Shown in pieces: positions 38,243 to 40,223 of a stretch of 64,000 nt of DNA; positions within the stretch are counted from its first letter, which is position 1, and each line of letters starts with the position of its first letter. Below the pieces are notes generated by a model, which had not been told where the DNA came from, did no database searches, and worked only from the letters and a program-made list of their open reading frames with translations. Location: assembly GCF_036237315.1 (NCBI RefSeq), contig NZ_CP108356.1, positions 7,135,501-7,199,500 on the forward strand, in the 5' to 3' direction. A program made the position numbers and the translations under genes. Source of the stretch: Streptomyces sp. NBC_01351 (GTDB taxonomy: Bacteria > Actinomycetota > Actinomycetes > Streptomycetales > Streptomycetaceae).

Positions 38243-39427
38243 CTACCAGAGCACGGGCAGACGCTCGGGGATGCGCTTCATGAACTGGGTGCGCCAGACG
38301 AGCTGCTCCACCGGCACGGCCAGGGCCAGCTCGGGCATCTTCTCCAGGAGGACCTCGATGGCGATCTCCGTGTGCCGCTTGCCCAGGGCCGTGGCGGGGC
38401 AGTAGTGGCCGCCGCCGCCGAAGGAGAGGTGCTGCGAGGCGTTCTCCCGGTCGATGTCGACGACGTGCGGGTCCGGGAAGACGGACGGGTCGGTGTTGGC
38501 GCCCTCGACCAGGACGAGCAGCAGCTCGCCCTTCTTCACCTCGACGTCACCGAGGGTGATGTCCTCGGTGGCCAGCCGGGGCAGGCCGTCGGCGATGGAG
38601 AGGTTGACGCGCAGCAGCTCGTCCACGGCGCCCGGGATCTTCTCCGGAGCCTTGCGCAGCTGCTCCCACACGTCGGGGTTCTGCAGCAGCGAGAAGATCG
38701 CCATGGTCAGGAAGCCCATGGTGGAGATGACCCCGGCGCCGAAGAACGTGACGCCGACGGTGGCCAGCATCTCGTCGGTCAGGTGCGCGTAGTCGGGGTC
38801 CTCGCGCAGCGCCGCCAGCTCGGCCATCAGACCGGTCGTGGCGGGGTCGTCGAGACGCTCGACCATGTAGGCCATGTCCCGGTCCCAGTTGAGCTTGGCG
38901 CCGGTGACGGGGCACGCCGAGTTCATGAACGCGATGTCGAGGCTGCCGGCCAGTCGCGGCGCGTCGGCCTGCGGGATGCCGAGGATGCGGCAGTGCAGGT
39001 TCTCGGCGTACGGGTTGGTGAACTGGCTCCGCAGGTCGACCGGCGCCCCGTAGGCCAGGATGTTGTCGACGAGCTCCGTGGCGTGGGCGCGCATCCAGTC
39101 GTTGAGACCGGCCGCCTTGGGGTTGATCGCCTTGAGCACGGCCTTGCGGAGGCCGGCGCCGGTGATGTTGCCCATGTTGTTGACGACCTCGGGCGGGATC
39201 GTCAGCGCGTACTGGCGGGGCACACCCGGGGCCGACGTGTCCTTGAGGCTGAACCGCGGATCTTCGAGGACCTGCTTGCACAGCTGATAGGAGGAAACGA
39301 GCCAGGCTTCGTCCCCGGCTATCGTCCGGACCTTCTTGACCGGCTCGGAGCGTAGCAGCTCGACCTCGGCGGGGATCTGGTCGCCGCGGGCGGAGAAGGG
39401 GAAGTCGAGGATGGTGTCAGTGCTCAT
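38243..39427 (-). CDS. Cytochrome P450, CYP121-like (mycocyclosin synthase type)
   Basis: A 394-residue P450. The heme loop is SFGGGGHYCPATALG with Cys343 as ligand; the canonical glycine two residues after the cysteine is Ala. The I-helix region TFFGAGVISTMGFL keeps the A-G-V-I-S motif of CYP121 (Ala231 and Ser235 here). Near-identical wording occurs at the C-terminus: LVWRT-QFMK-RIPERLPVLW, compared with the remembered CYP121 tail LVWRT-RFQR-RIPERLPVLW. So residues matching CYP121 Gln385 and Arg386 are Met383 and Lys384. CYP121 couples the two tyrosines of cyclo(Tyr-Tyr). The gene begins inside the end of the cyclodipeptide synthase gene (11-bp overlap), so the two act together. Whether the product is mycocyclosin or a variant is open. 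No ferredoxin is next to it. Confidence 0.88.
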   Translation of the reverse strand: MSTDTILDFPFSARGDQIPAEVELLRSEPVKKVRTIAGDEAWLVSSYQLCKQVLEDPRFSLKDTSAPGVPRQYALTIPPEVVNNMGNITGAGLRKAVLKAINPKAAGLNDWMRAHATELVDNILAYGAPVDLRSQFTNPYAENLHCRILGIPQADAPRLAGSLDIAFMNSACPVTGAKLNWDRDMAYMVERLDDPATTGLMAELAALREDPDYAHLTDEMLATVGVTFFGAGVISTMGFLTMAIFSLLQNPDVWEQLRKAPEKIPGAVDELLRVNLSIADGLPRLATEDITLGDVEVKKGELLLVLVEGANTDPSVFPDPHVVDIDRENASQHLSFGGGGHYCPATALGKRHTEIAIEVLLEKMPELALAVPVEQLVWRTQFMKRIPERLPVLW

Positions 39428-40223
39428 CGAAGGATCCTTCGGCGGGGGTGATGACGGCGTGGCCCTGGTTGCGGGAGGCGCGCAGGCCCGAGCCGCGCGA
39501 GTAGAGCAATTCCGCCATCGGCAGGAGCTGGTGGTAGCAGTTCAGAGAGGACGGCACGCCCATGATCGCGGGCGTGTCGAGGAAGAGCGGCGCCTCGGCG
39601 CAGACGTACTGGAGGCAGACTTCGCGCTGCCGCGTGGTCGCGGTCTCCCCGTTCAGCACCTTGGAGGAGAGGAACGAGTCGACGAGCGCGCTGCAAGTCG
39701 CTCGGAAGTCGGGGTCGTTGTCCAGTCGGCGGGTCAGGTCCGAGTGGATGGCCTGGTAGGCCGGGATGTCGGTGAGGGCCGACATCGGGCGGGCGCGCAG
39801 TCGGACGCCCGAGGGGTCGGCCTCGGCGGCGGCGTTGTTGACCTTGGCGCGGACTCCGCGCAGGTTCTTCACCGACTTGCGCCGCGCCTCGATCTCGTCG
39901 TAGCCGAGTGCTTCGTACATCTCGGCGACGTACATGTCGGTGTAGATCAGGTCGACCTGATCGAAGTTGCGCATGCCCCATTGGGCAAGGTCGAGAATGC
40001 GCTGCGCGGAGAAGTAGCTGTTACCCGGCGAGATGCCGATGACCGCGTGGTCGCCCTCTTTGTTGATTACTTCGCAATGCGGGGTGTACGGCCGGACTGT
40101 GAAGACTTCGGTCGCTGTCGTCAACAGGTGTCGGGTCCTTCGCGCCGCTAGTCCCAGGGGGCCCTGTGCCCAAGGTGTGGCGGCGACGTGATGGAAGGTA
40201 CCTGAATTCGAAGGCGTGCTCAT
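39417..40223 (-). CDS. tRNA-dependent cyclodipeptide synthase, Rv2275-like (NYH family)
   Basis: A 268-residue cyclodipeptide synthase, which makes cyclic dipeptides from two aminoacyl-tRNAs. Ser65 is the acyl-enzyme nucleophile in VIGISPGNSYFS, Asn68 is the NYH-family Asn, Tyr206 and Glu210 are in QYVCAEAPLF, and Tyr230-His231 are in NCYHQ. EALGYDEIEARRKSVKNLRGVRAK and LLYSRGSGLRASRNQGHAV also match M. tuberculosis Rv2275 as I remember it. Rv2275 makes cyclo(L-Tyr-L-Tyr), so the same product is likely. ATG 40223 is chosen; only a weak AGAAG is nearby, and an AAGGAG lies 18 bases upstream, too far for the usual spacing. It overlaps the P450 gene by 11 bp. Confidence 0.9.
   Translation of the reverse strand: MSTPSNSGTFHHVAATPWAQGPLGLAARRTRHLLTTATEVFTVRPYTPHCEVINKEGDHAVIGISPGNSYFSAQRILDLAQWGMRNFDQVDLIYTDMYVAEMYEALGYDEIEARRKSVKNLRGVRAKVNNAAAEADPSGVRLRARPMSALTDIPAYQAIHSDLTRRLDNDPDFRATCSALVDSFLSSKVLNGETATTRQREVCLQYVCAEAPLFLDTPAIMGVPSSLNCYHQLLPMAELLYSRGSGLRASRNQGHAVITPAEGSFDEH

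What the first reader, a model, noticed from the sequence alone, without database searches (positions are those of the whole stretch)
38243..40223. A mycocyclosin-type CDPS and CYP121-like P450 with active-site changes
Both proteins closely resemble the Rv2275 and CYP121 pair, with catalytic CDPS residues intact (Ser65, Asn68, Tyr206, Glu210, Tyr230, His231) and an 11-bp gene overlap. In the P450, the positions corresponding to CYP121 Gln385 and Arg386 are Met383 and Lys384, and the heme-loop Gly is Ala. The enzyme may make mycocyclosin, another C-C or C-O linked product, or act on a different cyclic dipeptide.
Basis: partly seen in the sequence, partly recalled or inferred. Interest (0 to 1): 0.8.

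Follow-up and report, generated by a model that had tools for sequence, protein, structure and literature searches.

The report
Streptomyces gymAB-type cyclodityrosine gene pair
This is an ordinary, intact copy of a two-gene Streptomyces pathway already described: one enzyme joins two tyrosines into a ring and its partner P450 probably cross-links that ring and also attaches a purine base to it; the 'changed' active-site residues are simply how this branch of the enzyme family looks.

Summary
A CDPS (39417-40223, -) and a P450 (38243-39427, -) overlap by 11 bases. The six named CDPS residues are present; CYP121 Gln385, Arg386 and Gly347 correspond to Met383, Lys384 and Ala345. But the P450 is 87% identical to GymB1 of Streptomyces flavidovirens (PDB 8q6z), which has the same three residues. 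A review reports the 'gym' cdps-p450 locus as widely distributed in Streptomyces; six expressed pairs gave mycocyclosin plus two purine adducts, guatyromycines A and B. In 118 distinct P450 rows, Met-Lys occurs in 85, Ile-Lys in 26, and Gln-Arg or Ala-Arg only in the 4 CYP121-like ones. The 'changes' are a clade signature. The CDPS pockets match the published cyclo(Tyr-Tyr) group. Best reading: a gymAB orthologue whose P450 both cross-links cYY and couples it to guanine or hypoxanthine. No product was measured. New member of a known kind. A modest extra: position 385 tracks the partner CDPS type (Met with cYY, Ile with cWW), and Lys386 is shared by the clades of GymB1 and PtmB.

The parts
39417..40223 (-). 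gymA-type cyclodipeptide synthase, NYH subfamily; P1 motif VGITMLFN, P2 motif LSFSQLP (cYY group)
   Evidence: motif definitions from PMC5816076
38243..39427 (-). gymB-type cytochrome P450 (CYP121-like), 87% identical to GymB1; Cys343 heme ligand, Ala345, Met383, Lys384
39417..39427 (-). 11-base overlap of the two genes (a start codon giving the same overlap exists in 24 of 31 related named loci L003-L033; otherwise 4 bases in 6 and 14 bases in 1)

Best explanation
A gymAB orthologue. Step 1 (inferred from pocket motifs): the CDPS uses two Tyr-tRNA to make mainly cyclo(L-Tyr-L-Tyr), with cYF and cYA as likely minor products. Step 2 (inferred from 87% identity to GymB1 and a nearly identical pocket set): the P450, translated from an overlapping start, oxidises a tyrosine of cYY to a radical. 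The radical either closes onto the other tyrosine (C-C bond, mycocyclosin) or is caught by a free purine base: guanine on the phenol oxygen, hypoxanthine ortho to it (guatyromycines A and B). Shown here: genes, residues, orthology, distribution. Not shown: any product; the radical step is taken from CYP121 literature, and its use for purine coupling is my inference.
For: P450 340/393 identical to P0051, which a source names GymB1, S. flavidovirens; in a 74-row tree the window sits with GymB1 in a 30-row set with support 100/98. At the 37 contact, heme-loop and C-terminal sites that I chose, the window differs from GymB1 at two only (CYP121 numbering 179 Lys/Arg, 230 Phe/Met). CDPS P1/P2 motifs fit the cYY rows VG[IV]TMLFN and L-x-[FY]-x-QLP; NF052540 above cut-off. 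Product set reported for six expressed gym pairs (PMC10092475 section 7); that GymB1 is one of the six is inferred from its name. Of seven genes flanking the pair in the window, none lies near the pair in more than 6 of 31 named loci, in keeping with a two-gene pathway.
Against: No product data for this strain. The CDPS is less like the one at the GymB1 locus (about 70%) than the P450 is. Phe228 in the window is Phe as in CYP121, whereas GymB1 has Met and most of the nearest relatives Leu; the product ratio could differ. The primary gym paper is not held, so the product claim rests on a review.
Confidence: 0.87

Rival explanations
1. A plain mycocyclosin synthase pair: the P450 only closes the C-C bond of cYY, as reported for CYP121, and couples no purine.
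For: 62% identity to CYP121 and shared pocket residues such as Thr77, Asn85, Ala167, Trp182, Ala233 and Ser237 (CYP121 numbering); Phe at site 230 as in CYP121.
Against: Closer to GymB1 (87% against 62%); Met-Lys, Ala347, Gln73, Tyr74 and Ile280 are those of the gym rows, not of the CYP121 group. Gym enzymes are reported to make mycocyclosin too, so this rival is only the absence of the second activity.
Confidence: 0.09
2. The pair acts on another cyclic dipeptide (for example a Phe or Trp one) and makes a product outside the gym set.
For: Four characterised cYY CDPSs of Streptomyces and Streptacidiphilus also release cYA and cYF (PMC5816076 Table 1, seen as a passage), so side products are possible.
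Against: P1 Asn228 (Rv2275 Asn251, called essential for recognition of tyrosyl in a passage of PMC5816076) and both motifs are cYY type; CDPSs with LGVALFF-type P1, like the tryptophan-using ones of that paper, pair with Ile-Lys P450s instead.
Confidence: 0.04

Closest known systems
GymAB of Streptomyces flavidovirens (GymB1, PDB 8q6z; locus L010) and the gym loci described as widely distributed
   Same: Two overlapping genes, cYY-type CDPS, P450 87% identical with the same Ala, Met and Lys
   Different: 14-base instead of 11-base overlap; CDPS about 70% identical; Phe228 where GymB1 has Met
Rv2275 - CYP121 (mycocyclosin pathway of Mycobacterium tuberculosis)
   Same: CDPS catalytic residues and P1/P2 type, P450 family and most pocket residues; gene pairing as described in PMC7954767 (passages)
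   Different: 62% P450 identity; CYP121 Gln385/Arg386/Gly347/Phe280/Leu73/Asn74 are Met/Lys/Ala/Ile/Gln/Tyr here, as in all 63 gym rows
Guanitrypmycin-type pairs (PtmA-PtmB, GutA-GutD), cWW plus purine
   Same: Two-gene CDPS-P450 layout (PMC13122648 passages); PtmB has Lys at 386 and Ala at 347. No GutD sequence was compared by name
   Different: cWW substrate, Ile at 385; PtmB is 58% identical to the window P450. Ile-Lys rows with a CDPS beside them have tryptophan-type pockets

Membership tests
gym (GymA-GymB, guatyromycine) pathway | cdps and p450 as a two-gene unit on one strand | tested here: met
   11-base overlap; none of seven flanking window genes is a regular neighbour in 31 named loci
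gym (GymA-GymB, guatyromycine) pathway | CDPS of the cYY specificity group | tested here: met
   P1 VGITMLFN, P2 LSFSQLP; NF052540 420 bits over cut-off 300
gym (GymA-GymB, guatyromycine) pathway | P450 orthologous to GymB1 | tested here: met
   340/393 identities; same 30-row set at support 100/98
gym (GymA-GymB, guatyromycine) pathway | Products mycocyclosin and guatyromycines A and B | not testable with these tools
   needs expression and LC-MS
CYP121 group (CYP121 plus L074, L079, L080; presumed mycobacterial) | Falls in the CYP121 branch of the tree | tested here: not met
   The four CYP121-group rows form their own branch (100/100); the window lies outside
CYP121 group (CYP121 plus L074, L079, L080; presumed mycobacterial) | Arg386 (with Gln385, in one row Ala) and Gly347 | tested here: not met
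   Met383, Lys384, Ala345
CDPS, NYH subfamily | Ser/Asn/Tyr/Glu/Tyr/His catalytic set | tested here: met
   SNYEYH at 65, 68, 206, 210, 230, 231
Guanitrypmycin-type (cWW) pairs | tryptophan-type CDPS pockets and Ile at 385 | tested here: not met
   window has cYY pockets and Met

The most novel reading that the evidence does not exclude
Positions 385/386 are a functional code for this P450 family. Lys386 goes with purine coupling (the GymB1 and PtmB clades alike), Met or Ile at 385 with the cyclic dipeptide (cYY or cWW), and the Gln-Arg of CYP121 is the odd, derived state that went with keeping only C-C closure.
Probability: 0.25. Interest if true: 0.5.

Novelty: new member of a known kind. 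Interest (0 to 1): 0.2.

Why it matters
Alone it adds one more gym locus to a set already reported as widespread (71 of 295 sampled genomes of the genus, the window's own included, carry a relative of this P450 at E <= 1e-100, some of them only the cWW type). The useful by-product is a residue table that separates three groups of one enzyme family and says which residues to test when asking why some of these P450s attach purines while the reported natural reaction of CYP121 is ring closure. I made no search for purine coupling by CYP121 itself.

Tried and rejected
Rejected: (1) Met383/Lys384/Ala345 as private changes of this enzyme; 85 of 118 distinct rows share Met-Lys. (2) A larger cluster: seven genes flanking the pair in the window were sought in the 31 named loci L003-L033 (up to about 6 kb each side). 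No match for the GAPDH-like, radical SAM and 128-aa genes; partial matches (19-33% of the query) to the SpoIIE-type phosphatase in L014 and L033 and to the SARP-like regulator in L015, L019 and L029; an alpha/beta hydrolase with a small neighbouring gene lies beside the pair in 6 of 31 (L006, L007, L008, L009, L014, L033). Genes that other loci share but the window lacks were not sought. (3) An RNA element or promoter signal near the pair: no Rfam match in 36000-41000; no promoter-like site and terminator-like sites near chance level (2 found, 1.2 expected) in 37600-40600. (4) Structure prediction was not run, as an 87% identical chain is solved.

Limits of the residue survey: 18 rows identical to or contained in others were dropped, as were three distant Aeromicrobium hits (L034-L036); one row (L083) ends before position 385. 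Rows against a clean rule: L128 reads Ile-Thr with no CDPS in the stretch fetched, L131 Val-Lys, L080 Ala-Arg, L113 Ile-Lys with no CDPS in the stretch fetched; 3 of 84 Met-Lys rows with a CDPS in the stretch have a P1 read that departs from the TM...N pattern (LGLTLLFN, VGVTVLFN and one cut off). The links follow clades, so they are few evolutionary events, not 100 independent ones. The tree does not settle whether the gym rows are one clade or enclose the CYP121 group (36% of bootstrap trees have them as one side of a branch; midpoint root), so 'derived in mycobacteria' is open. In some searches GymB1 is counted twice (P0051 and L010). Whether the 385/386 pattern has been discussed in print is not known to me: the listings showed no paper on GymB structures, and most subscription papers are not held.

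Full report
What is there. On the - strand of the window lie a cyclodipeptide synthase (39417-40223, 268 aa) and a P450 (38243-39427, 394 aa) that overlap by 11 bases. The window is part of an 8.9 Mb genome; the named close relatives are Streptomyces, Streptacidiphilus and Yinghuangia. Against CYP121 (PDB 1n40) these fall on Cys345, Gly347, Gln385 and Arg386.

What it is closest to. The best solved relative of the P450 is GymB1 (PDB 8q6z, E 6.7e-234), then the chain 8q6x, and only then CYP121 (E 7e-164). P0051, which a source names GymB1 of Streptomyces flavidovirens, is 340/393 identical; its locus is L010. The CDPS passes the NCBIfam model for cyclodityrosine synthase with 420 bits against a cut-off of 300. 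Rv2275 is its best solved relative.

What gym pairs do. PMC10092475 (section 7 read; passages) says that a widely distributed Streptomyces locus, gym, holds a cdps and a p450, and that six such pairs expressed in S. albus gave mycocyclosin, guatyromycine A (guanine on the phenol hydroxyl) and guatyromycine B (hypoxanthine at its ortho position), the P450s being both intramolecular oxidases and nucleobase transferases. The primary paper (Angew. Chem. 2022, e202200377) was seen only as an entry in a reference list and is not held. That GymB1 is one of the six is inferred from its name.

Are the residue changes special? No. One search aligned the window with loci. One search added the remaining hits (fetched) and kept 118 distinct rows, after dropping 18 identical or contained ones and three distant ones. 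At CYP121 positions 385/386: Met-Lys 85 rows (the window included), Ile-Lys 26, Gln-Arg 3, Ala-Arg 1, Ile-Thr 1, Val-Lys 1, not covered 1. In one search (74 rows, GymB1 counted twice) position 347 is Ala in 63 of 63 gym and 7 of 7 Ile-Lys rows and Gly in 4 of 4 CYP121-group rows; Gln73, Tyr74, Ile280 and Lys386 also separate the gym rows from the CYP121 group without exception.

Role of those residues in CYP121. Passages of PMC11084333 describe a cYY hydroxyl in water-mediated contact with Gln385 and Arg386, and a changed redox potential in R386L. Met-Lys keeps the positive charge and loses an amide. Since gym enzymes are reported to make mycocyclosin and those read here carry Met-Lys, this change should not prevent ring closure.

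Which dipeptide. With the pocket positions of PMC5816076 (section 11; passages), the window CDPS reads P1 VGITMLFN and P2 LSFSQLP. The paper's four Streptomyces and Streptacidiphilus cYY enzymes read VG[IV]TMLFN and L-x-[FY]-x-QLP and release cYY at 58-71%, with cYF and cYA. In one search, 81 of 84 Met-Lys rows with a CDPS in the stretch have the TM...N P1 pattern. The 23 Ile-Lys rows with a CDPS have L(G/E)(V/I)ALFF-type P1, like the tryptophan-accepting enzymes of that table.

How it most likely works. Two Tyr-tRNA give cYY; the P450 oxidises a phenol, and the radical either couples within cYY or with a free purine. Genes, residues and orthology are shown; specificity is inferred from motifs; products are inferred from 87% identity to GymB1; the radical mechanism is from work on CYP121 (PMC7954767 passages). 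One pocket site differs from GymB1 in a way that might alter the product ratio: Phe228 (Met in GymB1, Leu in most of the nearest relatives, Phe in CYP121 and in 8 of the 63 gym rows including the window).

Distribution and relatives in the same genome. 71 of 295 sampled genomes of the genus, own included, have a match at E <= 1e-100, counting both types; 13 of 394 across the class at E <= 1e-90, own included; 3 of 118 in the genus of G372 at E <= 1e-90. This genome has a second pair (L037, CDPS 7642-8391 and P450 from about 8372 to 9622) whose CDPS reads LGVALFFA / MHFSVMP and whose P450 has Ile-Lys and is nearest to 9o4d and then PtmB among solved chains. PtmB is described as coupling fed cWW with guanine and hypoxanthine (PMC13122648 passages). 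So the strain may make purine adducts of both cYY and cWW; this is inference.

Verdict. A real, intact, already described kind of system; a new member. The remaining open point is whether 385/386 governs purine coupling. The association here follows clades and is not proof.

Noticed in passing
43367-43569: A perfect 101-base unit in two tandem copies lies in a SARP/AfsR-like regulator gene; 101 is not a multiple of 3, and the winged-helix part (43158-43808) and the BTAD, NB-ARC and TPR part (43358-46309) are in different frames. Could be a recent break, a reversible switch or an assembly error.
   Followed up: partly
L037:7642-9622 (genome C1 about 2.63 Mb): Second CDPS-P450 pair in the same genome, of the cWW, guanitrypmycin-like type (CDPS P1 LGVALFFA, P450 Ile-Lys, nearest solved chains 9o4d and PtmB).
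   Followed up: yes
33171-34720: Alpha/beta hydrolase and a small gene that adjoin the gym pair in 6 of 31 related loci lie 3.5-4.2 kb away here and in reversed orientation, with a GAPDH-like and a radical SAM gene in between.
   Followed up: partly
L050, L094, L096 and L113 (one genome, G085): One genome carries four relatives of this P450: three Met-Lys and one Ile-Lys, the last without a CDPS in the stretch fetched.
   Followed up: no
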